The position numbers and the translations under genes are program-made. Positions 11,001-24,273 of a DNA stretch of 64,000 nucleotides are shown one piece after another. Below the pieces are notes generated by a model. The model ran no database searches. It was not told the DNA's origin and worked only from the letters and a program-made list of their open reading frames with translations. The stretch covers positions 372,001 to 436,000 of the forward strand of contig NZ_CP013355.1 in NCBI RefSeq assembly GCF_001543325.1, given 5' to 3'. The stretch's first letter is position 1. Every line of letters begins with the position of its first letter. Origin of the DNA: Lutibacter profundi (GTDB lineage Bacteria; Bacteroidota; Bacteroidia; Flavobacteriales; Flavobacteriaceae).

Positions 11001-12385
11001 TATTAACTGCAGCAGCAGCAGCTTTAGGTTTTTTACCTATGGCAATATCTACAAATGCCGGAGCTGAGGTTCAAAGACCATTGGCTACGGTGGTTATTGG
11101 TGGTTTGGTAACTGCAACAATTTTAACCTTGGTAGTGCTACCTGTTTTATATGCTATTTTTGACACCAAAGAATTTAAAATTAAGAGAAAAAATAAATTT
11201 AAAATGACCATATTTTCTTTACTTATTTTGAGTCCAATAATTGCTTTTTCACAAGAAAAACCAATAACTTTAAGTGAAGCTATTTCTTTGGCTGTTAATA
11301 ATAATAAGCAGCTTAATATTAAGAAATTAGAAGTTAATAAAGATAAAAAATTGGTTAATGGAGCTTTTGAAATTGATAAAACGAGATTGTACTATACTTA
11401 TGATGAAACTAATTTAGGGGTTAATGGTAAACCATTTGAAACTTTTGGCATTGATCAAACAATTGAATTTCCAACAGTATACTTTGCGAAAAAGAAAGTA
11501 GCTAAAATAAACGCTAATTTATCGGATTTAAACTATAATATAGCGAAAGAAAACCTAATAAAAGAAGTATCTAAATCATATTATAAAATTGTTTATTTAA
11601 ATCAAAAGAAGAAATATTTAGCTCATATAGATAGTTTATATAAAAACTTTTCAATAGCAGCAAAGCGAAAATTTGAATTGGGAGAATCTAGTTATTTGGA
11701 AATGATTATTTCACAGTCAAAACACAAGCAATTTGAGGTACAGTACAATCAACTTCAAAATGATATAAATATAGCTTATGAAAGTTTTAACTTATTGCTT
11801 CAAACAAATAGAGTAACCAGAGTAAAAAATATTGGCGTAGCAAAAGTTAAATTAAAGTATTTAAATTTAAGCTCTCATTTGGTTAATAGATATTATTCAG
11901 AAAACTCAAGATTATTTAATGCTAAAAAAGGATTAGAAAAGCAACAATTATTACCCGATTTACAATTTAATTATTTTAATAGTAAAGATTTAGTCGCAAA
12001 TACATCTGTAAACAGTTTTCAGGCAGGAATTACGATACCATTGTTCTTCTTGGGAAAATCATCAAAAATTAATGCTGCCAAAATACAGGAGGATATTTCT
12101 AATGAAATGGCAATAGATTCAAGCCTGAAGCTAGCATCTAAATATGAGCGCTTATTAGAAGAACTTAATAAAAATGAATCACAGTTAAATTATTACCAAG
12201 ATAACGGAAAAAAAATGGCGTCTGAAATTTTAAAAACGGCCATACTAAGCTATAGAAATGGGGAAATAGATTTTTTTCAATACATACAAAGCATTGAAAC
12301 TGCAAGTAAAATTGAGATGGATTATTTAAACATTTTAAATGCATATAATCAAATTGTTTTAGAAATAAATTATTTAAACTTATAA
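8057..12385 (+). CDS. cusA/czcA: CusA/CzcA-family heavy-metal RND efflux pump fused to a TolC-like outer-membrane domain
   Basis: Residues 1 to about 1040 form a complete heavy-metal RND pump: TM1 at about 15-33, porter domains, and the TM4 proton-relay segment DFGIIIDGAVIIVE, which resembles CzcA-type divalent-cation pumps more than the Cu/Ag-type CusA. After the last pump helix (VVLPVLYAIFDTKEF) the same frame continues into a signal-peptide-like segment (MTIFSLLILSPIIAFSQ, from Met1050) and about 375 residues of helical TolC/CzcC-type protein. The join is well known in Flavobacteriaceae. Met1050 (ATG at 11204) could allow a separate outer-membrane product. The adaptor gene follows after 2 bases. 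The exported metal is not certain. Confidence 0.9.
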   Translation: MLQKIIKLSISNKLIILLITAAIFGFGIFSLTQIPIGAVPDITNNQVQVITTSRNLSTQDVEQFITYPVELEMANLPGVKEIRSVSKFGLSVVTIVFDDDLGTYLPRQLIAEKIKTAAEKIPEGFGTPEMGPITTGLGEIYQYILDTKPGYKNKYSPMELRTIQDWIVKRQLSGIPGVVEVNTWGGFLKQYEVALNPEKLKSMNIEITQIIDALEKNNSIAGGGYIEKSNESYFVRGEGMIKSLEDIRTIVVKNVEGIPILIQDVAEVKFGFANRFGAITGNGEGEKVLGQVMMLKDGDSNRVIEAVKQRVAEIQKTLPEGIYINGFLERSELIGKTTFTIAENLILGVIIVIFVVILLLGSFRSGLVVASVIPLSLLFTLSMMYIFGVDANLMSLGAIDFGIIIDGAVIIVEFIAFKITSNRTELMKLSKNDRQDSIDKITYDSSSKMMTSAVFGQLIILIVFIPILSLSGVEGKMFKPMAMAFSFALIGAMFLCFTYVPVIASIFLKPEKVTKNNISKRLMSFFLSLYEPTIKWALNHKNTVIISSVALLIATGILFSRMGGEFIPTLDEGDFVIQPVLKTGTSLTRTVEITTQIEQILLDNFPEVAQVVSRIGAAEVPTDPMSMEESDVIIKLKPKGEWVSANTKDELADKFKEKLSIIPGVDFEFTQPIEMRFNELITGVRADVAIKIFGEDLTVLASKATEIKQKIANVEGASDIIVEKIDGLPQMTVSYDRKKVSRYGLNIKDLNQVISMAFAGETLGSVFEGERRFDLVVRMQSGYRKNIDGLKNLYVDAPSGNKIPLHELATIAYTKGPAKISRDNTKRRIVIGVNVRNRDMESVVEDIQKIIEKEVKLPVGYTVSYGGQFENLNSAKARLIIALPIALFLIFILLHFAFKSIKEALMVFSAIPLSAVGGVLFLWIRDLPFSISAGVGFIALFGIAVLNGIVLIEHLKELKKRGMDDINERILLGTKERLRPVILTAAAAALGFLPMAISTNAGAEVQRPLATVVIGGLVTATILTLVVLPVLYAIFDTKEFKIKRKNKFKMTIFSLLILSPIIAFSQEKPITLSEAISLAVNNNKQLNIKKLEVNKDKKLVNGAFEIDKTRLYYTYDETNLGVNGKPFETFGIDQTIEFPTVYFAKKKVAKINANLSDLNYNIAKENLIKEVSKSYYKIVYLNQKKKYLAHIDSLYKNFSIAAKRKFELGESSYLEMIISQSKHKQFEVQYNQLQNDINIAYESFNLLLQTNRVTRVKNIGVAKVKLKYLNLSSHLVNRYYSENSRLFNAKKGLEKQQLLPDLQFNYFNSKDLVANTSVNSFQAGITIPLFFLGKSSKINAAKIQEDISNEMAIDSSLKLASKYERLLEELNKNESQLNYYQDNGKKMASEILKTAILSYRNGEIDFFQYIQSIETASKIEMDYLNILNAYNQIVLEINYLNL

Positions 12386-12387
12386 AA

Positions 12388-13521
12388 ATGAAAAATCACA
12401 TATTAAAAATAGCATTCCTTTTTTTTATAATTAGTACAGTTTCTTGTAAAAATTCAAAAACTGAAGAAATACCTGTTGATATTATAAAAAAAGATAATAG
12501 CCTTGTTGAAATTACTTCCTCTCAGTTTGAAAATTCAAAAATGGAATTAGGGAAAATTTCAAAGCAACTTTTTACAGAAACTATTAAAACAAATGGATAT
12601 ATAGATGTGCCTCCAGCAAACCGTGCAAAAGTAAGTGCTATAATTGGAGGATATGTTAAGAAATCTCCGTTACTAGTTGGTGATAGGGTAACCAAAGGAC
12701 AATTATTATTAACTATTGAGAACCCAGATTTTATTGAAATACAACAAAATTATTTAGAAATTTCTGAGAAATTAACCTATCTAAAATCTGAATATAATAG
12801 GCAAAAAATCTTATTTGATGAAAACATCACTTCGAAAAAAAACTATTTAAAAGCAGAAAGTGATTATAAAAGTTCTGTAGCTTTACTTAACGGATTGGCC
12901 GCAAAGTTGAAAATGATTAATATCAACCCCTTAAGTGTAAAAGCGGGTAAAATAACATCAATAGTGCCAATTTACGCTCCAATAAGTGGAAGTGTAACCG
13001 CTGTTTATACAAATGTAGGAGAATTTATGAATGCATCAGATGTTTTGTTGGAAATAATAAATAACGAACATAAACACCTTGAGTTAATTGTATTTGAAAA
13101 AGAAATTTTAAAAATTAGAGAAAAACAGCCAATTTTATTTAAAATTCCTGAGTCTTCTTCAGAAAAATATAAAGCTAAAGTTTTCTTAGTTGGAAAATCA
13201 ATTGATAAAAATAGAACAGTTAGGGTGCATGGACACCTAGAAAACGAAGATGTACCTTTTATAGTAGGTATGTTTGTTGAAGCGAAGATTATTACCAACT
13301 CTGTTGAAAAACAAGCATTACCTATTGAAACTGTTCTTGAAAAAGATGGCGAATATTTTGTTTTGGTGTTGAGAGAAAAAAATAATGAAACATATAAATT
13401 TGAAAAAATAAAAGTTGAAATTGGAGAAAAAAATGAAGATTGGATTGAAATATTAGACAATAACTTAGAAAATATACAAATTTTAACAAAAGGAGCTTTT
13501 TTACCATTGGAGAAAGGTTAA
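12388..13521 (+). CDS. cusB/czcB: RND efflux periplasmic adaptor (CusB/CzcB, HlyD family) lipoprotein
   Basis: The 377-residue protein starts with a lipoprotein signal peptide (lipobox STVSC, Cys about 20). It has a barrel-sandwich/lipoyl-like motif (GGYVKKSPLLVGDRVTKGQ), a long helical hairpin (about 110-170), the second lipoyl half (IYAPISGSVTAVY) and a beta barrel (IVGMFVEAKI). Such adaptors bridge inner-membrane pump and outer-membrane channel. Because the channel is fused to the pump in the preceding gene, this pair forms the complete tripartite system. The stop is followed by the promoter of the next gene. Confidence 0.9.
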   Translation: MKNHILKIAFLFFIISTVSCKNSKTEEIPVDIIKKDNSLVEITSSQFENSKMELGKISKQLFTETIKTNGYIDVPPANRAKVSAIIGGYVKKSPLLVGDRVTKGQLLLTIENPDFIEIQQNYLEISEKLTYLKSEYNRQKILFDENITSKKNYLKAESDYKSSVALLNGLAAKLKMININPLSVKAGKITSIVPIYAPISGSVTAVYTNVGEFMNASDVLLEIINNEHKHLELIVFEKEILKIREKQPILFKIPESSSEKYKAKVFLVGKSIDKNRTVRVHGHLENEDVPFIVGMFVEAKIITNSVEKQALPIETVLEKDGEYFVLVLREKNNETYKFEKIKVEIGEKNEDWIEILDNNLENIQILTKGAFLPLEKG

Positions 13522-13576
13522 ACTGTTTATTGTTACTAAATAGTATTTAAAATTAAATTTAATGAATTCTATTTTG

Positions 13577-13584
13577 TATTTTTG
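13577..13584 (+). promoter_or_regulatory. -7 box (TATTTTTG) upstream of prohibitin gene
   Basis: It matches TAnnTTTG and lies 22 bases before the ATG at 13607, downstream of a possible in-frame ATG at 13562; this decides the start for 13607. Confidence 0.6.
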
Positions 13585-13606
13585 GCTAAATCTAAAAAAA
13601 CTAAAA

Positions 13607-14440
13607 ATGAGCGATAACGGACAGTTAAAATTACCAAAATCAATAATGCCTATCATTATATTAGTGATAGTTGTTATAATATTTTTATCAAAGTCTACAA
13701 TTACCATTGATTCAGGAGAAGTAGGAGTTTTATATAAAACTTTTGGAGGCGGAGTTGTTACAGATGAAGCACCTTTGGGAGAAGGCTTTCATATAGTTGC
13801 ACCTTGGAATAAAGTTTTTGTATACAATGTAAGACAGCAAGAATTGTTTGAAAGAGAGATGTCTGTATTATCTTCAAATGGACTTGAAATTAAATTAGAT
13901 GCTTCTGTATTATATCAACCTACAGCAGCTACAGTTGGATTTTTACATCAAACAAGAGGTTCAGATTATTTAAATAGTGTAATTATACCTGCAATTAGAT
14001 CAGCAACAAGAAGTGTTGTTGGTAGATATACACCAGAACAATTATATTCAACAAAAAGAGATGCGATACAGGCAGAAATTTTTGAAGAAACAAAAAAAAT
14101 TATTGAACCTCAATATATACAACTAAATTCAGTTTTAGTGAGAGATGTAACACTTCCTCCTACAATCAAAACAGCAATTGAACGTAAACTAAAGCAAGAA
14201 CAAGAATCTTTAGAGTATGAATTTAGATTGGTAACAGCATCAAAAGAAGCTGAAAAAGTACGTATTGAAGCACAAGGAAAAGCAGATGCTAACCGTATTT
14301 TAAGTGCATCACTTAACGATAAAATTTTACGTGATAAAGGTATTGAAGCTACTATAAAATTAGCTGAATCTCCTAATAGTAAAGTTATTGTTATAGGTTC
14401 AGGAAAAGGTGGTTTACCTATTATTTTAGGAAATCAATAA
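13607..14440 (+). CDS. Prohibitin (SPFH/Band 7) family membrane protein
   Basis: The 277 residues carry one N-terminal membrane helix (about 10-30) followed by a Band 7 domain (GEVGVLYKTFGGG through SVLVRDVTLPPTIKTAIERK) and a charged coiled-coil tail (EQESLEYEFRLVTASKEAEKVRIEAQGKADANR). Prohibitins form ring-like membrane scaffolds and often modulate FtsH-type proteases; the role here is not shown by neighbours. The start at 13607 is preferred over 13562 because a -7 box lies between them. A strong palindromic terminator follows. Confidence 0.9.
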   Translation: MSDNGQLKLPKSIMPIIILVIVVIIFLSKSTITIDSGEVGVLYKTFGGGVVTDEAPLGEGFHIVAPWNKVFVYNVRQQELFEREMSVLSSNGLEIKLDASVLYQPTAATVGFLHQTRGSDYLNSVIIPAIRSATRSVVGRYTPEQLYSTKRDAIQAEIFEETKKIIEPQYIQLNSVLVRDVTLPPTIKTAIERKLKQEQESLEYEFRLVTASKEAEKVRIEAQGKADANRILSASLNDKILRDKGIEATIKLAESPNSKVIVIGSGKGGLPIILGNQ

Positions 14441-14460
14441 TAATTTATAGTTAACTTTTA

Positions 14461-14498
14461 AAAAAGACCGTCTGAAAATATTTTCAGACGGTCTTTTT
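14461..14498. terminator. Bidirectional terminator between prohibitin and glycerate kinase
   Basis: A perfect palindrome (18-bp arms around TA) with A- and T-runs can terminate both converging units. Its right half encodes the last codons and TGA stop of glycerate kinase on the minus strand. Confidence 0.88.
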
Positions 14499-15620
14499 TA
14501 TTGCCTGAATTAAGTTATGAGCGATATTTGTAACGTGACTTGAAGCATTTTGGGTAGCATCTTCAATAGTTACACCTAAATCTAGAATTGCATGAATAGA
14601 TGAAGGGTTTAAATTTTCTTGAACTAATTCTTTATCTTTAATAACTCCTGAAATAATAGAAAAGGGGATGTTATTTTGAGTAGCAATAACACTAATACCT
14701 TTAATTACTTTTCCTTCAAGAGTTTGTTTATCAACACTTCCTTCTCCTGTAATTATTAAATCTATTTTAGAGTTTAAATGCTTTTTGAATTTGGTTTGCT
14801 CTATCATAAAATCAATTCCTGATTTTATATTGGCATTTAAAAAACATACTGCGCCAGCACCCAATCCACCTGCAGCTCCAGCTCCAGCTCCTTCAATGGT
14901 ATTCACAGATTTACCGAAGTGATTTTTAACTTGTTTACTGAAATTTAGCAAGCCTAAATCTAGCATTTCAATTTCTTCAGCAGAAGCTCCTTTTTGACTT
15001 CCGTAGGCAAAAGCAGCTCCATTTTTGCCATACAATGGGTTTTTAACATCACAAACAACGGTAAAGTTAATGTTGGTCAAATCAAAAAGTATATTTTCTT
15101 TTTTTATTTTGGTTATATTTATTAATTCTTTTCCTATTGGAGTAATTAATTCATTTTTGGTGTTGTAAAACTCATAACCTAAGGCTGTAGCCATACCAAT
15201 ACCAGCATCGTTTGTAGCACTTCCTCCAATAAAAAGCACAATATTTTTAAAACCCTTTTCCAGTGCATCTAAAATTAATTGTCCTGTACCAATAGTTGAA
15301 GTATAATAACAATTTTGCTGATGTTTTTCTAATAATTGGAGTCCGGAAGCACTAGACATTTCAATAAAAGCGGTATCACTTGATACATTGTAATTTGCAG
15401 CAATATACTTGAACAAAGGGTTTTTTACAAGTACAGAAATGGTCTCTAATTTAAAATAGTTTTGTAAAATATCTAATGTACCTTCACCGCCATCGGCAAG
15501 AGGGTGTTTAATGGTTTCAATTGTAGAATCAAATTTTTTAATACCTTTTTCAACTGCATCACAAACATCTTGTGCAGAAAGGGAACCTTTAAATTTATCA
15601 GGAGCAATAATAATTTTCAT
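14484..15620 (-). CDS. glxK: Glycerate kinase (GlxK/GarK type)
   Basis: The 378-residue protein begins with the family signature MKIIIAPDKFKGSLSAQDVCDA and contains HPLADGGEGTLDIL, GGSATNDAGIGMATALGYEF and GAGAAGGLGAG, all typical of class-I glycerate kinases that make 2-phosphoglycerate from D-glycerate and ATP. It is the last gene of the operon 23074-14484 and starts 8 bases after the GH13 phosphorylase stop. In this setting it would capture the glycerate released from glucosylglycerate or mannosylglycerate and feed it to glycolysis. The terminator palindrome overlaps its 3' end. Confidence 0.93.
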   Translation of the reverse strand: MKIIIAPDKFKGSLSAQDVCDAVEKGIKKFDSTIETIKHPLADGGEGTLDILQNYFKLETISVLVKNPLFKYIAANYNVSSDTAFIEMSSASGLQLLEKHQQNCYYTSTIGTGQLILDALEKGFKNIVLFIGGSATNDAGIGMATALGYEFYNTKNELITPIGKELINITKIKKENILFDLTNINFTVVCDVKNPLYGKNGAAFAYGSQKGASAEEIEMLDLGLLNFSKQVKNHFGKSVNTIEGAGAGAAGGLGAGAVCFLNANIKSGIDFMIEQTKFKKHLNSKIDLIITGEGSVDKQTLEGKVIKGISVIATQNNIPFSIISGVIKDKELVQENLNPSSIHAILDLGVTIEDATQNASSHVTNIAHNLIQAIKKTV

Positions 15621-15628
15621 TTATGTTG

Positions 15629-17323
15629 TTATTTTTCTTTAAACCAAGCATAATTGTGTGGCTCAATTTTCCAAGTATTTTCTACTAACTCTTCATTATT
15701 TAATAAATCAACTGCATTTTTTGCTAAAGCATTTATTTTAATCAATGTATTGCTAAAGTTAAAAACTGTGTAAATAATTTCTTTATTGAACTGTCTTTTT
15801 ATGACAAATATTTTATGGTTTTCAAGATTAAAGTATTCCGCTTTACCAAACGGATTAAAGGCCTTTTCATTGGTTCTAACCTTTAAGAGTTTTTTATAAG
15901 AAGTGTAAACTTTATTTCTTAAGCCTCCAAAAATTTTAAGTTCTTTAGAAATTTCTTCAAAAATAAGTTTTTCTCTGTTTATTCTTCTTTTAATACCCGA
16001 TTCTTCAACGCCTTTATAATAATTACGGGAGCCAACTAACGAATGAAAATAAATACCTGGCACACCAGGCATTGCAAGCATAACAGCTTGTGTAAGTAAC
16101 ATTTTGCGTATAATGGTTTCTTCATTATCACTTTCGGTACTCAATAAATCCATATAGTTGCAATTCAATTCATAAGGAGATTGGGTACCGTCTTCGTTGT
16201 TTTTGTACCCAACTTGTCCGCCACGTTTTTCAGCATGATGTGCTAATTCATTTATTTCTTCACTAGAAATAATATTTTGAAGCGGTCGCATACCTATACC
16301 ATCATGACTGGCGGTGAAATTGAAAAAACACACTTTATTACTTGGAAGTTCTAATGAGTTTGCCCATTTAGAAAGTACTTTTGTATTTCCTTTTATAATT
16401 GAATAAACTAATAAAGGAGCTAAGGTAAAATTATATACCAAATCAGCTTCATCTTGTCCATTTCCAAAATAGGAAATATTTTCTTTATGCGGAACGTTAG
16501 TTTCTGTAATAAGAAAAACGTTGTTTGTTAATGTCTTAATTATCTGTTTATACAATTTAATAATTGTATGAGTTTCAGTTAAATGAATACAAGATGTTCC
16601 AATTTTTTTCCATAAAAAAGCAATAGCATCCAATCGTATAAATTTTGCATTTTTTGAAGCATAGAATAACAAAACATCTAAAACTGCAATAAAAACTTCG
16701 GGTGCTGCATAATTTAAATCTACCTGATCTTCACTAAAAGTAGTCCATATATGCTTTTCAACTCCATGTGTATTTTTAAAAGGTGTTAATAGCGGTAAAG
16801 CTCTAGGACGAACTACCATAGATAGGTTTTCATTTGGGGTAACAGCTAAAAAAAAATCTTTATATTCACTATCTTCGGCTAAAAATGATTTGAACCATTG
16901 TGAAGATTTAGACATGTGATTTACTACTGCATCAAACATTAAATTACTACGATTAGATAGGTTTGAAATATCATTCCAACTCCCTAAATTTGAATCTACT
17001 TCAAAATAATCTGTAACAGAAAATCCATCATCTGATGTGTATGGAAAAAATGGTAAAATGTGTGTAGTATTAATTTCAGGTAAACAAAATTCATCCACAA
17101 ACTGTTTTAATGTTTGCAAATGAGTTTGACCTTGTTTTTGTACATTATCTCCATAGGTAATTAGAATCACGTCCTTTTCATTTAAAGGATTATTTGTCGC
17201 ATTAATTTTTGTCCTATATTTTTCAATTAATTGTTCTATATGCTTGTAAACCCAATTAGAACGATCTCCGTAAAGGTCTTTTAGGGAGTTAATTATAGTT
17301 GCTTTATTTAAAGGTTTTGTCAT
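15629..17323 (-). CDS. GH13 subfamily 18 phosphorylase, probable glucosylglycerate phosphorylase
   Basis: The 564-residue protein is a sucrose-phosphorylase-type GH13 enzyme: opening LITYGDNVQ, HILPFFPYTSDDGFSVTDY, region I DAVVNH (131-136), nucleophile Asp232 in RLDAIAFLWK, acid/base Glu274 in LITETNVPH and HD (340-341) in FTASHDGIGMRP. Known GH13_18 members phosphorolyse sucrose, sucrose 6-phosphate, glucosylglycerate or glucosylglycerol; E. coli YcjM acts on glucosylglycerate and has a similar length. Pairing with glycerate kinase and a GH63 mannosyl/glucosylglycerate-type hydrolase favours glucosylglycerate, giving glucose 1-phosphate plus glycerate. The substrate assignment is inference from context; membership of GH13_18 is fairly sure. 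Confidence 0.85.
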   Translation of the reverse strand: MTKPLNKATIINSLKDLYGDRSNWVYKHIEQLIEKYRTKINATNNPLNEKDVILITYGDNVQKQGQTHLQTLKQFVDEFCLPEINTTHILPFFPYTSDDGFSVTDYFEVDSNLGSWNDISNLSNRSNLMFDAVVNHMSKSSQWFKSFLAEDSEYKDFFLAVTPNENLSMVVRPRALPLLTPFKNTHGVEKHIWTTFSEDQVDLNYAAPEVFIAVLDVLLFYASKNAKFIRLDAIAFLWKKIGTSCIHLTETHTIIKLYKQIIKTLTNNVFLITETNVPHKENISYFGNGQDEADLVYNFTLAPLLVYSIIKGNTKVLSKWANSLELPSNKVCFFNFTASHDGIGMRPLQNIISSEEINELAHHAEKRGGQVGYKNNEDGTQSPYELNCNYMDLLSTESDNEETIIRKMLLTQAVMLAMPGVPGIYFHSLVGSRNYYKGVEESGIKRRINREKLIFEEISKELKIFGGLRNKVYTSYKKLLKVRTNEKAFNPFGKAEYFNLENHKIFVIKRQFNKEIIYTVFNFSNTLIKINALAKNAVDLLNNEELVENTWKIEPHNYAWFKEK

Positions 17324-17385
17324 AAATATTGATAAAACAGATTGTTATAAATACAGATTAATAGTATTAATAATTAGATTTGAGA

Positions 17386-19005
17386 TTAAATATACCCTAA
17401 AATTGTTGGTAAATAGAGACTAAATATTAAGATGACAATAAAGAATATAAGTAAAATTAAAACTTCTTTTGATAACACATCTTCTCGCTTTATTATGAAA
17501 TTAATAGTGAAACTTTCTTTGGTTTTTGATTTGTAAATTTCGCTAAATAATAAAGCAAGCACTATAGTAATTACAAAACCTGTAAGATTAAACCATATCC
17601 AAAAGATGTTTTCAAAATTGAATTTGATTAAAAGGTTAATAACAACACCACCAACAATACCTACATTCATACCTATATGGTTTACTCTTTTCACTAAAAT
17701 AGCCAATACAAATGTTGCTAAAATTGGCCCATAAAATTGAGATGAAATGATATTAATAAGTTCAATTACAGTTCCTTGAGTTCCTCCAAATAAATATGCT
17801 GCGGCAATACATACAATACCCCAAAAAATTACTGATAATTTGGAATATTTCATATAGTTAGCTTCACTTAATTTTTTTGAACCCCTATTAAAAAAATCCT
17901 CGATACTAACAGCACCCAAAGAGTTAATAGTTGAACTTAACGAAGACATTGCTGCAGATAAAATACCAACTATTAAAATCCCTATTAACCCATGTGGTAA
18001 ATATTTGGTTATAAAAACAGGAATCATTAAATCTGCTTTAATGCCATTTGTAAGAAATTGCTCAGGATAATGTAATCGTGTCATATCAGTAATTTCGGTA
18101 AGAAAATCAGGTGTTAATAGTACTAAAGCACCAATAATCAATCCCATTAAGCTGTATACCAGTACAATAGGAAAACGTAACAATCCATTTGCTAATAATA
18201 ATTTTTTAATTGTTCCTTCATTTTTAGCAGACATTAACCGTTGTGCCTGTGTTTGATCAGTTCCGTAGTATGAAATATATAAAAATAAGCCACCCAAAAC
18301 CATTGGCCAAAAACCAAATTCACCACCATCAAATCCGTAATTTGAAAATTCGATAACATTTAATCTTTGTGGGTCAAAACCAGTAAAATTACCATTATCT
18401 TGTAATAAGTTCCATCCGTAAATTAAACAAATAATTAAGCCTGTAAATAAAATAATCATTTGTATAGCATCTCCCCAAACAACAGCTTTCATTCCTCCTT
18501 GGTAGGAATATATTAAAGTAATAACACTTATAATTAAAATGGTCCAATGAAAGTTTATATTTAATACAGCTTGCAATATCATTGCAATAGTGTACACCAT
18601 TACACCAGTTGCCAAAGATCTACTAATTTGAAAAACAACACTTAAAATAATACGGGTTGAAGTTGAAAAACGTCTTTCAACAAATTCATAAATACTAATA
18701 ATATTTGCACGGTAGAGTGGTGGGATAATAATTAGCATTATTCCAATCATAGCCAATGGAACAGCGAATTCAAAAGTCAACCATTTCATTCCGCCATTTT
18801 GTGCCAACCCAACAAAAGCGGGAGCAGAAATAAAGCTAATTGCAGATAATTGTGTAGCCATTGTTGATAAACTTAATGGAAACCAACCCATATCTTGACC
18901 ACCCAAAAAATAGTCTTTAGCATTTTTATTTTCTTTGAAAAAATAACCCAATCCTAAAAAGCCTACGGAATAAACGATAACAACTAAATAATCTAACCAA
19001 TTCAT
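17386..19005 (-). CDS. Sodium:solute symporter (SSS family)
   Basis: The 539-residue integral membrane protein has 13-14 hydrophobic helices and SSS-family signatures: DYFLGGQDMGWFPLSLSTMATQLSAISFISAPA near the N-terminus (residues about 31-64) and the GILIVGILSAAMSSLSSTINSLGAVSIEDFF sodium-site helix (about 340-370). It closely resembles sugar/glycoside-type SSS transporters. It lies in the operon between the GH63 hydrolase and the GH13 phosphorylase and probably imports the glycoside (or a cleavage product) across the inner membrane with sodium. Confidence 0.9.
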   Translation of the reverse strand: MNWLDYLVVIVYSVGFLGLGYFFKENKNAKDYFLGGQDMGWFPLSLSTMATQLSAISFISAPAFVGLAQNGGMKWLTFEFAVPLAMIGIMLIIIPPLYRANIISIYEFVERRFSTSTRIILSVVFQISRSLATGVMVYTIAMILQAVLNINFHWTILIISVITLIYSYQGGMKAVVWGDAIQMIILFTGLIICLIYGWNLLQDNGNFTGFDPQRLNVIEFSNYGFDGGEFGFWPMVLGGLFLYISYYGTDQTQAQRLMSAKNEGTIKKLLLANGLLRFPIVLVYSLMGLIIGALVLLTPDFLTEITDMTRLHYPEQFLTNGIKADLMIPVFITKYLPHGLIGILIVGILSAAMSSLSSTINSLGAVSIEDFFNRGSKKLSEANYMKYSKLSVIFWGIVCIAAAYLFGGTQGTVIELINIISSQFYGPILATFVLAILVKRVNHIGMNVGIVGGVVINLLIKFNFENIFWIWFNLTGFVITIVLALLFSEIYKSKTKESFTINFIIKREDVLSKEVLILLIFFIVILIFSLYLPTILGYI

Positions 19006-19026
19006 ATTACAGATTTTATGTGTTTA

Positions 19027-20367
19027 TTAATTATTAATTAAATCTAAAAATAAAGCTGCACTCCATGAAAAATTATTTCCTCCACATCCTTTACTTTCTG
19101 TATTATAAACTGATTTTCTAGCGTCAAAATATTCATAAAAACCAACTTTATCAACTAATTCTATACTGTCTGACTTTATTCTTTGTGCAATTTCATTATA
19201 TCCATAATCAAGTAATCCATAATATAGCATCCAATTTAAATTAATCCAAACAGGGCCTCTCCAATATTTTTTCGGGTTATAGCGCTCATTTGTTGGATCA
19301 AATGAAGCACATAAATACATGTCTTCTCCTCCAAATTTTGTAATCATTGTAGAAATAAGTTGAGCTGCTCTTTGCTTACTTGGTATGTTTGCAAATATAG
19401 GTACAAAAGAAGATGAACTTACTAAACGAATAGGTTTTTCATTTCTTAAATCGTAATGAACATAAGCTCCTAATTCATCATCATATAATTTGGTGTTAAA
19501 TGATTTAACACCTTTGTTTGTCCATTTTAGAAGTTGCGTTATTTTATCTTCATTATTACCAATAATTTTGTACAAATTAATTAATGCATTATTAGATTTT
19601 ATAAGTACTGCATTAAACAAGGGGTCTTGCACTAAAAAAGGAGATAATTCAGCAATTTTTGCATCATCGTAATTGTTTTCTTTAGCAATATCAATAATGT
19701 GTAGATAGTAATTGTATTCTTTTTTTGTAGGTCTTTCAGAAGGATCTACATGTGAAGTGTCCCTTCTTTCAAAATCGTAATCAGGTGAGTTCATTGTTTT
19801 CCATATATCATCCCAAACAGGGGAGTTATCTGTTCCAGATTCCCAGTTGTGATAAATATAAACAAGTCCTTCATTATTTATATCTCTATTCTTATAAAAG
19901 TAGGTGTGATTATCATAAACTTTATCGATATTTTTTTTTATAAAATCCAAAATATCTATTTTATCTTTTGCAATCTGATATATTTTTTCAAGAACAAAAC
20001 CTGTAACAGGAGGTTGAGTCATTCCTGTCGACTTATATTCTGTTGAAGCATCTAGATGTAATTCTGCCATATGAAAATCGGGCCCTGGGAAATAAGAATT
20101 ACTTTCATTATGGAAAATTATGTGTGGAATAAATCCGTTATTCCATTGAGCATTTAAAAGTGTTTCTATTTCACTTTTTGCTTTATTTATGTCATAATGA
20201 GCATATCCAATAGCTATAAATCCAGAATCCCAATACCATTGAAATGGATACAAACCTTTGCATGGCAATGTAAATCCTTTTTTTTCTTGGAAGTTAGAGT
20301 TCAAAATATTTTGAGCGGTATTTACTAGGCTAGATGTCATTGAGGTGATTTTAAAAAAAGGATACAT
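19027..20367 (-). CDS. GH63 family hydrolase, probable mannosylglycerate/glucosylglycerate hydrolase
   Basis: The 446-residue protein has an (alpha/alpha)6 GH63 look: FQWYWDSGF (Asp47), FHMAELHLDAST, GMTQPPVTGF, NWESGTDNSPVWDD with probable acid Asp180, and FYEYFDARKSV (Glu412, probable base) before NNFSWSAALFLDL. These segments and the length agree with the bacterial mannosylglycerate/glucosylglycerate hydrolase group known from Thermus and Mycobacterium. No signal peptide is seen, so it should act in the cytoplasm, releasing a hexose and glycerate. An alternative start at Met10 (20340) is possible. It lies 47 bases after the TonB receptor stop. Confidence 0.82.
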   Translation of the reverse strand: MYPFFKITSMTSSLVNTAQNILNSNFQEKKGFTLPCKGLYPFQWYWDSGFIAIGYAHYDINKAKSEIETLLNAQWNNGFIPHIIFHNESNSYFPGPDFHMAELHLDASTEYKSTGMTQPPVTGFVLEKIYQIAKDKIDILDFIKKNIDKVYDNHTYFYKNRDINNEGLVYIYHNWESGTDNSPVWDDIWKTMNSPDYDFERRDTSHVDPSERPTKKEYNYYLHIIDIAKENNYDDAKIAELSPFLVQDPLFNAVLIKSNNALINLYKIIGNNEDKITQLLKWTNKGVKSFNTKLYDDELGAYVHYDLRNEKPIRLVSSSSFVPIFANIPSKQRAAQLISTMITKFGGEDMYLCASFDPTNERYNPKKYWRGPVWINLNWMLYYGLLDYGYNEIAQRIKSDSIELVDKVGFYEYFDARKSVYNTESKGCGGNNFSWSAALFLDLINN

Positions 20368-20413
20368 TAATAAGTTACCTCATTAATGTACCCTAGTCAT
20401 TAATTAACAAATA

Positions 20414-23074
20414 TTAAAAATTAAATGTTGCAGTTAAGAATACTCTACGAGGTAAAATAGGTCTTCCAAAGAAAAACTCTTCTTCTACCTGCCCTACAGC
20501 TCTTGGATCTCCTTCTGTAACAGCATCACTATCAAGTGCATTAAAGACTGAAAACCCAAGTCTTAAAGTCTCATCATTTTCACCTAAATTCATGGAATAA
20601 CCAGCACCTAATCTTAGTATACTAATAGCTTCTAATTCTATATTGTTATTATCTGCAGCAAATTTTTTGCCCGTATAGTTCATTGATAGCATTGTATCAA
20701 ACTTGCTATTGTCATAATATAAACCTAAGCTCCCTAAAATATTAGGCTGTCTTGCTAACTTATTTCCTTCATCAGCAATTGTTGTACCGCCATTCACTAA
20801 ATCTTCATTTATATTTTTGGTAATTTCATGGTTTTGATAAGTTGCTGAACCTCTAAAGTTTAAAACTTCAGTAAGTTTATAATCCCAAGTAGCTTCTAGG
20901 CCAAAAGTAGCTGTATTTTGCTCAGACCTAGTTTGATCAACTAAAGAACCGTTTACAATTGCTTGAGTTATTTTAATTCTATCTTTTAAACTAACATAAT
21001 ACATGGCTAAAGAACCGGTTAATTTATCATTACCAATTTTAGTACCTGCTTCAAATTGAATAATTTTTTCTGAATCATATTTACTACCAGTAACACCTGT
21101 TGCAATTGGAGTAAACCCTCTAAGTTGTGGAAAGAAAAATCCTTTTGAAAAGTTTGCATATAAGTTTACTACATCAGATAATTCATATAAACCTGCTAAA
21201 GATAAGGCCCAATCTGTTGCATTAACATCTGCAATAGTAAAGCCTCCATCTGCATATTTTACATTACTTAATGCTGATGTAATGTTAGCATCATTATAAA
21301 CTGTAGATTCAACTATACTACCATTGCTAAAAGTACCTTTTGTATTTTCAATTCTAAACCCTACATCAAAACGCCATTTATCAAAAATCATTTCATCTGT
21401 AGCATAAAAAGCAGATTTGTTTTGAGATAAATACTTGTTAGATGTCATTCCTATTCTGTTATAAATACCTTGTTGTGAATAAATAACATTGTTACCGCTA
21501 GCATTAGTATAACTAAGATTTACTATTTGTGGGTTATTGTTAAATTCAGATAACACTCTAAATTGATAGTTAATATCTTCAGCTTCCGTACGTGATATAA
21601 AAGTACCTACTGTAATATTATGAGATCCATTATCTGTTTCAACTCTTTTTATTAAAGAAGCTTCACCTGAGTAATCTGTCATAGGGCGTAGTCTATCAAT
21701 ATGTAAATTGTCAATTACTAAATCTGAACCACTAATTTGTTCAGAAGAACCTTGGTATGTAGCAGAGTAACCTAAATTACCAGCATCTAAACCATTTACA
21801 TAATCATTTAAGGAAATTGGGTTGCCTTGAGCACCGTTTCCTCCAATGTATAATGCAAAGCTGTGTTTGTAATTTGCGTATTTAATTTTTGATTTAAATT
21901 TTAAATTATTATCAAACCTGTAATTAAAATCTGCCATTAAATATCCGCCTTGTGTTGAAACTCCATCAGCGATAGGACTTTTATAAATACCACCAGGTGT
22001 ATTAAAAGAAACGTTAGCTAATTGAGAAGGTAATAATTGATATACATCTTCTCCGTCATTACCTGCTAAACGAGATCTACTACCTCCTTCTAATGGTAAT
22101 GGCATAAAGAACTGAGCGTTATCATTTATAAATTGTCCGTGAATTGTAAAAGACCCATTATCAAATTTCTTTTTAATGTTAGCTCTTAACTGAACACCTT
22201 TTGTTGGTAATCCCGTGTTAATTGGTCCTTCATCATATCTCATAAACCCTGTTAAGGCATAGTATGTGTTAGAATCTTCACCACCTAATTGGCCACCAGT
22301 ATAAAAATCAGTTTTAATTCTTCCTTCGTTAGCCCACTCTACGTTAACAAGATTTTCAGGATTAGAATCACCTGTTTTACTTGTATAATTTATAATACCA
22401 GCTACTGAACCTGCACCATATAATACTGCAGCACCACCTCTTACAAATTCTACACCTTTAAAACCAACATCAGGTCTAGCGTATACATCGTGTGCAGAAG
22501 AGTTTAAGCCAAAAGTACTCATTAATGGCATTCCATCATATTGTAAAGGGTTAAAAACATACTGACCACCAGAAGGTAACCCTCTAACAAAAACATTTGT
22601 TGCAGTTTCACCACCACCACCTTCAGCAGTTATACCAGGTACACTTCTAATGATGTCTGCTTGGCTATTTGCAGATAATTTAATAATATCTTTTTGTTTG
22701 ATAGAAGTAATTGATAAAGGAGATTGTTTTTGGGATCTTCTAGTAGATGTAGCTGTTAAAACAACATCTTCGAGGCTTTCAACACTTTCATTTAAGATAA
22801 AATCAACTGTTACAATTCCAGAAAAATTAATAGTTTTAGTTTGAGAAAAGTATCCCATAAATAAAGCTTTTAATTCATGTTCACCCGTTAATTGAGTTGT
22901 TATTTCATAGTTTCCGTCAAAATCAGTAGTAGTTCCAACATCAGTACCACTAATAATAATATTTACCCCAGGTATTGGACTTCCAGATTTATCAACAACA
23001 GTCCCTTTAACTGTTGTTTGAGAATAAGCAAAAGAACTTATTAATAATAAAAGTCCTAGTATAATTTTTTTCAT
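20414..23074 (-). CDS. TonB-dependent outer-membrane receptor of the glycoside locus
   Basis: The 886-residue protein has a signal peptide (1-19, FAYSQ), a carboxypeptidase-regulatory-like domain (about 20-105), a plug (SITSIKQKDIIKLSANSQADIIRSVPGITAEGGG onward, about 120-230) and a 22-strand type barrel ending in VFLTATFNF. No SusD-type partner gene is adjacent, so it is a stand-alone receptor rather than a SusC/D pair, which fits uptake of a small charged glycoside. It is the first gene of the operon 23074-14484 and is divergent from the LacI regulator, with palindromic operators between. Confidence 0.92.
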   Translation of the reverse strand: MKKIILGLLLLISSFAYSQTTVKGTVVDKSGSPIPGVNIIISGTDVGTTTDFDGNYEITTQLTGEHELKALFMGYFSQTKTINFSGIVTVDFILNESVESLEDVVLTATSTRRSQKQSPLSITSIKQKDIIKLSANSQADIIRSVPGITAEGGGGETATNVFVRGLPSGGQYVFNPLQYDGMPLMSTFGLNSSAHDVYARPDVGFKGVEFVRGGAAVLYGAGSVAGIINYTSKTGDSNPENLVNVEWANEGRIKTDFYTGGQLGGEDSNTYYALTGFMRYDEGPINTGLPTKGVQLRANIKKKFDNGSFTIHGQFINDNAQFFMPLPLEGGSRSRLAGNDGEDVYQLLPSQLANVSFNTPGGIYKSPIADGVSTQGGYLMADFNYRFDNNLKFKSKIKYANYKHSFALYIGGNGAQGNPISLNDYVNGLDAGNLGYSATYQGSSEQISGSDLVIDNLHIDRLRPMTDYSGEASLIKRVETDNGSHNITVGTFISRTEAEDINYQFRVLSEFNNNPQIVNLSYTNASGNNVIYSQQGIYNRIGMTSNKYLSQNKSAFYATDEMIFDKWRFDVGFRIENTKGTFSNGSIVESTVYNDANITSALSNVKYADGGFTIADVNATDWALSLAGLYELSDVVNLYANFSKGFFFPQLRGFTPIATGVTGSKYDSEKIIQFEAGTKIGNDKLTGSLAMYYVSLKDRIKITQAIVNGSLVDQTRSEQNTATFGLEATWDYKLTEVLNFRGSATYQNHEITKNINEDLVNGGTTIADEGNKLARQPNILGSLGLYYDNSKFDTMLSMNYTGKKFAADNNNIELEAISILRLGAGYSMNLGENDETLRLGFSVFNALDSDAVTEGDPRAVGQVEEEFFFGRPILPRRVFLTATFNF

Positions 23075-23148
23075 AAGTATAAATAGTTAAAAATTAGTAT
23101 TCTATTAATTATTCTGTAAATGAAAACATAAACTAGTTAATTTTGCAT

Positions 23149-23156
23149 CAAATTTA
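23149..23156 (-). promoter_or_regulatory. -7 box of the TonB receptor operon
   Basis: On the minus strand it reads TAAATTTG (TAnnTTTG), 75 bases before the receptor start. The LacI-type palindrome begins 13 bases upstream of it, a position suited to repression. Confidence 0.6.
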
Positions 23157-23168
23157 GTCAAATATCTA

Positions 23169-23182
23169 CGCAAACGTTTGCG
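23169..23182. promoter_or_regulatory. LacI-family operator O1 (perfect 14-bp palindrome)
   Basis: CGCAAACGTTTGCG is a perfect palindrome with the central CG and flanking AAA/TTT typical of LacI/GalR operators. It lies between the divergent regulator and receptor genes, next to the receptor's -7 box. Confidence 0.85.
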
Positions 23183-23195
23183 GTAACGTTTGCAA
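23183..23195. promoter_or_regulatory. Second, degenerate LacI-family operator O2
   Basis: GTAACGTTTGCAA repeats the right half of O1 exactly with its centre 12 bp further on; the left half is degenerate. It contains the -33 TTTG of the regulator's promoter, which suggests autoregulation. Confidence 0.6.
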
Positions 23196-23219
23196 TTTAA
23201 AATTATAAGGTTAAGTTTG
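23189..23219 (+). promoter_or_regulatory. Promoter of the LacI regulator (TTTG-N19-TAAGTTTG)
   Basis: TTTG at 23189-23192 and TAAGTTTG at 23212-23219 are separated by exactly 19 bases, a full match to the Bacteroidota consensus; the ATG is 25 bases downstream. Confidence 0.75.
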
Positions 23220-23244
23220 TACTCATAAACCAAAAATTTATAAA

Positions 23245-24273
23245 ATGCCAAAGAAAAATTTAATTACACTAAAAAAAATTGCTCAAGATTTAGGGTTCTC
23301 AATTTCTACTGTTTCAAGAGCATTAAATGATCATCCAGACATTAGTATAAAAACGAAGGAGAAAATTAAGGCATTTGCGTCTAAATTTAACTATGTACCA
23401 AATTTATTTGCTAGAGGTTTTAGAACACATAAAACAAATATAATAGGGGTTATTGTCCCAAATATTTCGCATTACTTTACCTCAACTTTGCTTAAAGGTG
23501 TTTTAGAAGAGGCAGAAATTCATGGGTATAAAGTAATTATATCAGAATCTGTTAACAATATTACAAAGCAAACTGAAATGCTGCAAACAATGAACCAATT
23601 TGGCGTTGATGGAATCTTATTATCTTTAGCAAGGGAGACTAAAAATGTAGATACTATTCTAAATATACTTGAGCAAGTACCGCTAGTTTTGGTAGATAAA
23701 GTATCTACTAAAGTGCCTTGCACTCAGGTTGTTATAGATGATGAAGATGCAGCATTTAGAGCTGTTGAACATTTAATAAATACAGGAAAAAAACGTATTG
23801 CAATTATTAAAGAGACAGAAAGTTCTTTTACTTCTGAAAAAAGATATTTGGGTTATTTAAGAGCTTTAAGAACATATAATTTAGAAATTGATGATACTAT
23901 TATTTTAAGCTCGGAAGACATTTCAATTCATCAGGCAAAAAGACTTGCAAATATTTTAATAAGTCTACAACATAAACCTGATGCCGTTTTTGCTATTACC
24001 GATGGAGCAGCTATTGGGGTCATAAAAGCATTGAAAAAAAATAAAATTAACATCCCAGAAGAAATTGCTGTTGTTGGATTTAGCAATTCTCTAAATTCAA
24101 TTATTATAGAGCCTAAATTAACTACTATTGATCAACCAGGTAATAAAATTGGGTCTGTAGCTATGAAATACCTCATTAATGAAATTAACAATGAAAATAA
24201 TATTTCTAATAAAACAGTTGTTATAAAAACGAATTTAATAGTTAGGGACTCATCATTTAAAATAAATAAGTAG
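23245..24273 (+). CDS. LacI-family transcriptional regulator of the glycoside locus
   Basis: The 342 residues begin with a LacI helix-turn-helix (LKKIAQDLGFSISTVSRALNDHPDIS, about 9-34), a hinge (NYVPNLFARGFRTHKT) and a periplasmic-binding-protein-like effector domain starting NIIGVIVPNISHYF. It is divergent from the receptor operon, and the shared intergenic region has a LacI palindrome, so it should repress that operon and itself until the glycoside or a derivative binds. Effector identity is inferred from the operon only. Confidence 0.92.
   Translation: MPKKNLITLKKIAQDLGFSISTVSRALNDHPDISIKTKEKIKAFASKFNYVPNLFARGFRTHKTNIIGVIVPNISHYFTSTLLKGVLEEAEIHGYKVIISESVNNITKQTEMLQTMNQFGVDGILLSLARETKNVDTILNILEQVPLVLVDKVSTKVPCTQVVIDDEDAAFRAVEHLINTGKKRIAIIKETESSFTSEKRYLGYLRALRTYNLEIDDTIILSSEDISIHQAKRLANILISLQHKPDAVFAITDGAAIGVIKALKKNKINIPEEIAVVGFSNSLNSIIIEPKLTTIDQPGNKIGSVAMKYLINEINNENNISNKTVVIKTNLIVRDSSFKINK

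What the first reader, a model, noticed from the sequence alone, without database searches (positions are those of the whole stretch)
14484..24273. Complete compatible-solute (glucosylglycerate/mannosylglycerate) utilisation locus
Seen: one minus-strand operon (TonB receptor, GH63-type hydrolase, SSS symporter, GH13_18 phosphorylase, glycerate kinase) divergent from a LacI regulator. Family knowledge: GH63 members of this type hydrolyse mannosyl/glucosylglycerate, and GH13_18 includes glucosylglycerate phosphorylase; both release glycerate, which glycerate kinase would phosphorylate. Inference: the locus takes up and degrades a glycerate glycoside made as an osmolyte by algae or bacteria. It has both a hydrolytic and a phosphorolytic route and lacks SusD, unlike a standard polysaccharide utilisation locus.
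Basis: partly seen in the sequence, partly recalled or inferred. Interest (0 to 1): 0.75.

Follow-up and report, generated by a model that had tools for sequence, protein, structure and literature searches.

The report
Two-enzyme osmolyte-sugar breakdown locus
A bacterium carries a compact gene set that appears to import salt-stress sugars made by algae and bacteria (mannosylglycerate and glucosylglycerate) and break them down with two different enzymes, while relatives keep the shared parts with only one enzyme or the other.

Summary
In detail: divergent LacI gene, then TonB receptor, GH63, SSS symporter, GH13_18 and glycerate kinase at the stated places. The GH13_18 protein has both published glucosylglycerate phosphorylase (GGaP) fingerprints and clusters with E. 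coli YcjM, apart from sucrose and glucosylglycerol phosphorylase references. The GH63 keeps the catalytic pair and most substrate contacts of mannosyl/glucosylglycerate hydrolases, and is nearer Thermus MgH (41%) than MhGgH (32%). No glucosylglycerate synthase over cut-off was found, so scavenging fits. New here: in 397 sampled family genomes 57 hold the hydrolase and 10 GGaP; only 2 have both in one operon. Joint loci are not one clade on the GGaP tree (AU p 2e-27); one congener's GGaP operon keeps a 53-residue hydrolase remnant; a predicted LacI operator is shared by hydrolase-only, GGaP-only and joint operons. Best reading: interchangeable enzyme modules behind one import, regulation and kinase chassis, mannosylglycerate being hydrolysed and glucosylglycerate phosphorolysed. 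No activity was tested. Known enzyme kinds, unusual combination.

The parts
23245..24273 (+). LacI-family regulator, 342 aa, divergent from the enzyme genes
23169..23182 (.). Predicted LacI operator CGCAAACGTTTGCG, perfect palindrome in the divergent intergenic region; the only zero-mismatch match to YGCAAACGTTTGCR in the 2,966,978-base genome
23181..23194 (.). Overlapping weaker operator-like site (3 mismatches to CGCAAACGTTTGCG)
20414..23074 (-). TonB-dependent receptor, 886 aa, with carboxypeptidase-regulatory-like domain; N-terminus looks like a signal peptide (by eye)
20359..20394 (-). Terminator-like hairpin (16 pairs, 4 G-C, then T run) between receptor and hydrolase
19027..20340 (-). 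GH63 mannosyl/glucosylglycerate hydrolase-like protein; start moved from 20367 to Met10 because the first ATG lies in the hairpin
17386..19005 (-). Sodium:solute symporter (SSS family), 539 aa
15629..17323 (-). GH13_18 predicted glucosylglycerate phosphorylase, 564 aa (TETN 273-276, loop-A Glu385; Asp232 and Glu274 are the presumed nucleophile and acid/base)
14484..15620 (-). Glycerate kinase (TIGR00045 family), 378 aa

Best explanation
The locus imports and degrades two similar anionic osmolytes. Step 1 (inferred): the TonB receptor brings 2-O-alpha-mannosyl- and/or 2-O-alpha-glucosyl-glycerate through the outer membrane and the sodium symporter takes it into the cytoplasm. Step 2: the GH63 enzyme hydrolyses mannosylglycerate (and perhaps glucosylglycerate) to free sugar and D-glycerate, while the GH13_18 enzyme phosphorolyses glucosylglycerate to glucose 1-phosphate and D-glycerate (assigned by signatures and phylogeny; activity not shown). 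Step 3: the glycerate kinase phosphorylates glycerate for glycolysis (family knowledge). The LacI protein represses the set from CGCAAACGTTTGCG (operator predicted from conservation; inducer unknown). The chassis (LacI, operator, symporter, kinase) is shared with operons that hold only the hydrolase or only the phosphorylase, so the enzymes behave as interchangeable diet modules; here both are present.
For: GGaP: both published fingerprints in 48 of 48 rows of its clade and in 0 of 5 outgroup locus rows; tree with YcjM; sucrose phosphorylase model TIGR03852 under its cut-off (209 against 334 bits). Hydrolase: of 24 MhGgH active-site, tunnel or loop positions checked, 21 are identical to the 6g3n chain used as the MhGgH row and 20 to the residues named in PMC6608630 (which has Gln434 where 6g3n, Tt8MgH and the window have Phe); the catalytic Asp182/Glu419 equivalents are Asp180 and Glu412. 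Glycerate kinase adjacent. No glucosylglycerate synthase over cut-off in the genome. Mannose link: 5 of 55 hydrolase-only loci carry a manA-like gene in the same run of genes (TIGR00218 over cut-off for the one tested). Shared operator: 41 of 41 LacI-divergent intergenic regions (29 hydrolase-only, 7 GGaP-only, 5 joint) have a site with at most 3 mismatches; 0.1 of 41 expected from mononucleotide shuffles. Modularity; hydrolase remnant in L171.
Against: No activity, uptake or expression was measured. MgH of Thermus and Selaginella act on both glycosides with similar efficiency (PMC6608630 passage), so the GH63 may overlap the phosphorylase. The GH63 is under the NCBIfam glucosylglycerate hydrolase cut-off (311 against 550 bits). 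It differs from wild-type MhGgH at 215 and at loop-E positions 432, 433 and 434. No mannose kinase or isomerase lies in the window's own locus. The operator consensus came from the same regions in which it was counted. The synthase controls are weak: only 1 of 14 control genomes is over the cut-off for NF010496 and 0 of 14 for NF040724, and mannosylglycerate synthase was not searched. Five of the seven joint loci are MAG contigs.
Confidence: 0.7

Rival explanations
1. One substrate, two routes: both enzymes act on glucosylglycerate, the hydrolase serving when phosphate or flux makes phosphorolysis unfavourable.
For: Characterised MgH/GgH enzymes cleave glucosylglycerate too (PMC6608630 passages); NCBIfam's best model for the GH63 is named glucosylglycerate hydrolase (311 bits, under its cut-off). 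Redundancy would also let relatives lose either enzyme.
Against: Hydrolase operons are far commoner in the family than GGaP (57 against 10 of 397 genomes), a few with manA nearby (5 of 55); the GH63 is nearer Thermus MgH than MhGgH (41% against 32%) and, like Thermus MgH, has Phe where wild-type MhGgH, which prefers glucosylglycerate, has the sugar-contacting Gln434.
Confidence: 0.22
2. The joint locus is a passing state: one of the two enzyme sets is a recent gain or on its way out, and the pair has no special functional meaning. (Not exclusive of the best explanation.)
For: In congener L171 the receptor and most of the hydrolase are gone, 53 residues remaining; of nine congeners examined 2 are joint, 3 GGaP-only, 4 hydrolase-only.
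Against: Seven joint loci were seen, with GH63 and GH13 open frames of near-full length, and the joint state needs at least three changes on the GGaP tree, which can be gains or losses.
Confidence: 0.15
3. The GH13_18 protein is a sucrose, sucrose-phosphate or glucosylglycerol phosphorylase.
For: Its best neighbours among solved structures, by sequence and fold, are sucrose and glucosylglycerol phosphorylases, amylosucrases and sucrose hydrolases.
Against: No chain named glucosylglycerate phosphorylase was among those listed, so this was expected; fingerprints and tree put the protein with YcjM.
Confidence: 0.04

Closest known systems
Glucosylglycerate phosphorylase (GGaP, EC 2.4.1.352, GH13_18; E. 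coli YcjM)
   Same: TETN motif, loop-A Glu, phylogenetic clade, glycerate kinase neighbour in many loci
   Different: Here in a TonB/SSS import operon beside a GH63 hydrolase; in E. coli it sits with an ABC importer
Mannosylglycerate / glucosylglycerate hydrolase (GH63; Tt8MgH, MhGgH)
   Same: Catalytic pair and most substrate contacts, similar length
   Different: 41% and 32% identical; loop E differs from MhGgH; substrate preference unknown
Hydrolase-only operon of Flavobacteriaceae (probably the 'digeneaside' genes reported for Zobellia and Maribacter)
   Same: LacI, TonB receptor, GH63, SSS, glycerate kinase in the same order in many genomes
   Different: Lacks the phosphorylase. The link to the Zobellia genes is inference: that paper was not held and only a mention in PMC8072126 was seen
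GGaP-only operons (SSS-GGaP-glycerate kinase), e.g. Lutibacter oceani L050, Robiginitalea L020, Poritiphilus L021
   Same: Symporter, phosphorylase and kinase in order; operator in the seven GGaP-only loci with a scorable LacI-divergent region
   Different: No hydrolase; no TonB receptor in these three (other GGaP-only loci, L018, L022, L027, L030, have one)
susC/susD polysaccharide utilisation locus
   Same: TonB receptor, carbohydrate enzymes, regulator
   Different: No SusD found, receptor under the SusC cut-off, small predicted substrate

Membership tests
GGaP (GH13_18) | (T/S)ETN at the tip of beta-strand 5 | tested here: met
   TETN 273-276; 48 of 48 clade rows, 0 of 5 outgroup locus rows (motif from PMC7178133 passages)
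GGaP (GH13_18) | Glu in loop A | tested here: met
   PYELN, Glu385; 48 of 48 clade rows, 0 of 5 outgroup locus rows
GGaP (GH13_18) | Groups with a characterised GGaP, apart from SP and GGoP | tested here: met
   SH-aLRT 100, quick tree; one named GGaP (YcjM, L055); SP and GGoP rows were fragments copied, the GGoP row flagged as a long branch
GGaP (GH13_18) | Phosphorolysis of glucosylglycerate, not sucrose | not testable with these tools
   needs enzyme assay
MgH/GgH (GH63) | Catalytic Asp and Glu and conserved substrate contacts | tested here: met
   the 11 contacts that PMC6608630 lists as strictly conserved with the catalytic pair are all present; MhGgH's Gln434 is Phe here, as in Tt8MgH
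MgH/GgH (GH63) | PF22422 over cut-off | tested here: met
   294 bits against 27
NCBIfam NF047898 glucosylglycerate hydrolase equivalog | Score over the curated cut-off | tested here: not met
   311 against 550 bits: not filed as that equivalog
MgH (EC 3.2.1.170) | Mannosylglycerate as substrate | not testable with these tools
   41% to Tt8MgH, 32% to MhGgH is suggestive only
TIGR00045 glycerate kinase | Score over cut-off | tested here: met
   383 against 168 bits
susCD polysaccharide utilisation locus | SusD and SusC-type receptor | tested here: not met
   no SusD in the nine proteins scanned; receptor 90 against 368 bits for TIGR04056
Zobellia-type digeneaside operon | Gene content as published | not testable with these tools
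   source paper not held; only mentions seen

The most novel reading that the evidence does not exclude
Bacteroidota run a modular glycerate-glycoside diet system: one chassis (LacI, its CGCAAACGTTTGCG operator, symporter, kinase) is fitted with a hydrolase for mannosylglycerate, a phosphorylase for glucosylglycerate, or both, and lineages repeatedly gain and lose the enzyme modules, in part at the same chromosomal site, so the enzyme content of the operon reads out which osmolyte producers the bacterium feeds on.
Probability: 0.5. Interest if true: 0.55.

Novelty: new variant of a known kind. Interest (0 to 1): 0.42.

Why it matters
PMC7178133 notes that plenty of organisms not believed to accumulate glucosylglycerate still carry a putative GGaP and that its in vivo purpose needs study (passage). 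A regulated import-plus-kinase operon in a genome without a detected synthase gives a concrete, testable scavenging role. The natural series (hydrolase-only, phosphorylase-only, joint, and a decayed intermediate) makes the division of labour testable by growing wild strains, and would give a genome marker for feeding on mannosylglycerate (a red-algal solute, digeneaside) against glucosylglycerate (cyanobacteria and other bacteria).

Tried and rejected
Rejected: sucrose phosphorylase reading; susCD PUL; the cell recycling its own glucosylglycerate, because no GpgS-type synthase is over cut-off (best 49 against 262 bits for NF010496; no match for NF040724; both controls are weak, with 1 and 0 of 14 control genomes over the cut-off) and because GGaPs of operons with GpgS-like genes form a separate, well supported clade. 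Mannosylglycerate synthase was not searched for.

Errors on the way: MhGgH numbering was off by two (the solved chain carries extra residues) and was redone; ORF extraction was wrong for a few GH63 rows and was redone; L116 was labelled GGaP in the groups although it fell outside the GGaP clade, and was treated as outgroup from then on. It also used loss of either enzyme as an argument against the one-substrate rival; redundancy allows such losses, so that was taken out. The GH63 structure was not predicted (one of two jobs used). Foldseek and VIA-align list amylosucrases, sucrose hydrolases, trehalose synthases and GH13_18 phosphorylases together, which does not resolve substrate. Papers that gave nothing on this: PMC5507952 and PMC8443644 (passages).

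In the genus the kinase hit in G409 covers 33 residues and was not fetched, so 8 of the 9 hits in other genomes were examined. In one search only loci with a LacI hit over 150 bits and a divergent gene were scorable (41).
Full report
Observation. The window lies in a single-contig genome of 2,966,978 bases. Its genus is probably Lutibacter: G413, same genus, holds a contig of 103,827 bases, the length of the Lutibacter sp. B1 contig of L011, and G403 one of 817,607 bases, the length of the Lutibacter oceani contig of L050. Gaps inside the minus-strand run are 8 to 62 bases (coordinates). A 16-pair terminator-like hairpin lies between the receptor and hydrolase genes (the whole region has 4 such sites against 3.7 expected, so the scan as a whole is not enriched). 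With a scan of my own, terminator-like hairpins followed the receptor gene in 16 of 37 receptor-containing runs, against 65 of 740 mononucleotide shuffles. The hydrolase's listed ATG is inside the window's hairpin and homologues begin near the equivalent of Met10.

GH63 protein. Best solved relatives are Thermus Tt8MgH (2z07/4wva, 311 bits) and MhGgH chains (199 to 207 bits). Of 24 MhGgH positions checked (most named in passages of PMC6608630), the window equals the 6g3n chain at 21 and the residues named in the paper at 20. Identical are the catalytic pair (Asp180, Glu412) and the equivalents of Tyr36, Trp40, Trp42, Asp43, His78, Tyr88, Phe89, Gln115, Trp177, Gly180, Ser214, Arg216, Tyr222, Tyr375, Trp376, Trp381, Ser435 and Trp436. 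Positions 215, 432 and 433 differ. Position 434 is Phe in the window, in all 61 Bacteroidota rows and in Tt8MgH, but Gln in the paper's MhGgH and in chain 5ohc (6g3n has Phe). Gln434 contacts the sugar in MhGgH, which prefers glucosylglycerate over mannosylglycerate, while MgH of Thermus and Selaginella act about equally on both. So the window enzyme is MgH-like at that site, a hint rather than proof. Identity is 41% to the Tt8MgH fragment and 32% to the MhGgH fragment.

Distribution. In a sample of 397 genomes of the family, 57 hold the hydrolase and 10 the phosphorylase, both at E <= 1e-60. Four hold both (G000, G002, G180, G181); they share an operon only in G000 (the window) and G181. In G002 and G180 the phosphorylase sits elsewhere with genes clustering with a GpgS-like synthase, a phosphatase and a second kinase type (families named from one member each, L035). 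Over 103 loci (55 hydrolase-only, 41 GGaP-only, 7 joint, from the loci) the runs are LacI/receptor-GH63-SSS-kinase, SSS-GGaP-kinase, the joint order and others. The joint set is the window, L009, L011, L013, L015, L017 and L023; L013 has the order GH63-GGaP-SSS. Five of the seven are MAG contigs. In the genus, 10 of 38 genomes have the kinase (one hit is a 33-residue fragment). Of the nine others-plus-own examined, 2 are joint, 3 GGaP-only and 4 hydrolase-only.

History. In a 22-row GGaP tree the joint rows are not one clade (5 changes, at least 3 forced by starred branches; p-AU 2.4e-27). In the symporter tree (74 rows) the joint label needs 5 changes, all forced by starred branches; in the hydrolase tree (63 rows) it needs 3, with 2 forced. 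The window symporter's nearest row is from a hydrolase-only run (L129). Changes can be gains or losses. One loss is visible: in L171 the receptor and about the first 392 residues of the hydrolase are missing, and residues 393-445 remain between the operator and a symporter-GGaP-kinase run. The flanking genes also match: BamP-like and Band_7/HlyD genes in the window and L011, Band_7/HlyD in the GGaP-only L014, BamP alone in L171. So at least one GGaP-only operon derives from a joint one.

Regulation. CGCAAACGTTTGCG at 23169-23182 is the only zero-mismatch match to YGCAAACGTTTGCR in the genome; at up to 2 mismatches the pattern is no commoner than its reversed control (26 against 27 per strand). 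In 41 of 41 scorable LacI-divergent regions the best site has at most 3 mismatches (0.1 of 41 expected in mononucleotide shuffles), across hydrolase-only (29), GGaP-only (7) and joint (5) loci. The consensus was taken from these same regions, which inflates the count somewhat; the shared site still supports one regulator type for the three versions.

Metabolic fit. Outside the locus the genome has one ROK-family hit, one type I mannose-6-phosphate isomerase hit and two phosphoglucomutase/phosphomannomutase-family hits. No glucosyl-3-phosphoglycerate synthase is over cut-off (weak controls). Import and catabolism, rather than turnover of a home-made solute, is the simplest reading.

Prior art. 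Digeneaside (mannosylglycerate) degradation genes in Zobellia, with homologues in Maribacter, are mentioned in PMC8072126 (passage), and digeneaside as a possible substrate in PMC6298971 (passage); the Zobellia paper was not held. GGaP is reviewed in PMC7178133 and PMC11009771, and possible uptake of glucosylglycerate by Prochlorococcus is raised in PMC11631117 (passages). I saw no description of a joint hydrolase-phosphorylase operon in the listings or in the passages read; the library holds open-licence papers only, so this is weak evidence of absence.

Verdict. Known enzyme families in an unusual and evolutionarily mobile combination: a new variant of a known kind, moderately interesting because it offers a natural comparative series for a poorly understood enzyme.

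Noticed in passing
L018:8638-9984 and 11666-14521; also L022, L027, L030, L037, L042, L013, L015: A GT4 protein like mannosylglucosylglycerate synthase (NF041101, 437 bits in L018 and 420 in L013, cut-off 640) occurs in 8 GGaP-bearing runs, in four of them with a GH38 protein (the one tested, L018, is like mannosylglycerate hydrolase, 488 bits, cut-off 1138). In an import operon this suggests mannosylglucosylglycerate catabolism, perhaps with the GT4 working as a phosphorylase (inference).
   Followed up: partly
L149, L151, L152, L154, L025, L026, L028, L032, L033, L035: A second kind of GGaP run with GpgS-like synthase, phosphatase and MOFRL-type glycerate kinase (families named from L035), shared by Campylobacterota and some Flavobacteriaceae within one supported GGaP clade, which suggests transfer between phyla.
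   Followed up: partly
L171:8717-8875: 53-residue C-terminal hydrolase remnant between operator and symporter in a GGaP-only operon.
   Followed up: yes
window 20359-20394: Strong terminator-like hairpin between TonB receptor and enzyme genes; hairpins of this kind in 16 of 37 related receptor-containing runs.
   Followed up: partly
L127, L090, L091, L096, L138, L144, L145: A GNAT acetyltransferase-like gene of about 200 aa (Pfam tested for L127) lies between hydrolase and symporter in seven hydrolase-only runs; role unknown.
   Followed up: no
L014:481-1992 (same in L170): The symporter of this GGaP-only operon matches in three separate pieces, so it may be broken or misassembled.
   Followed up: no
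G000:C1:2775225-2775238: The only one-mismatch operator-like site in the genome lies within a cluster of GH13 hits at 2.77-2.79 Mb, perhaps a starch or maltose locus with its own LacI-type regulator.
   Followed up: no
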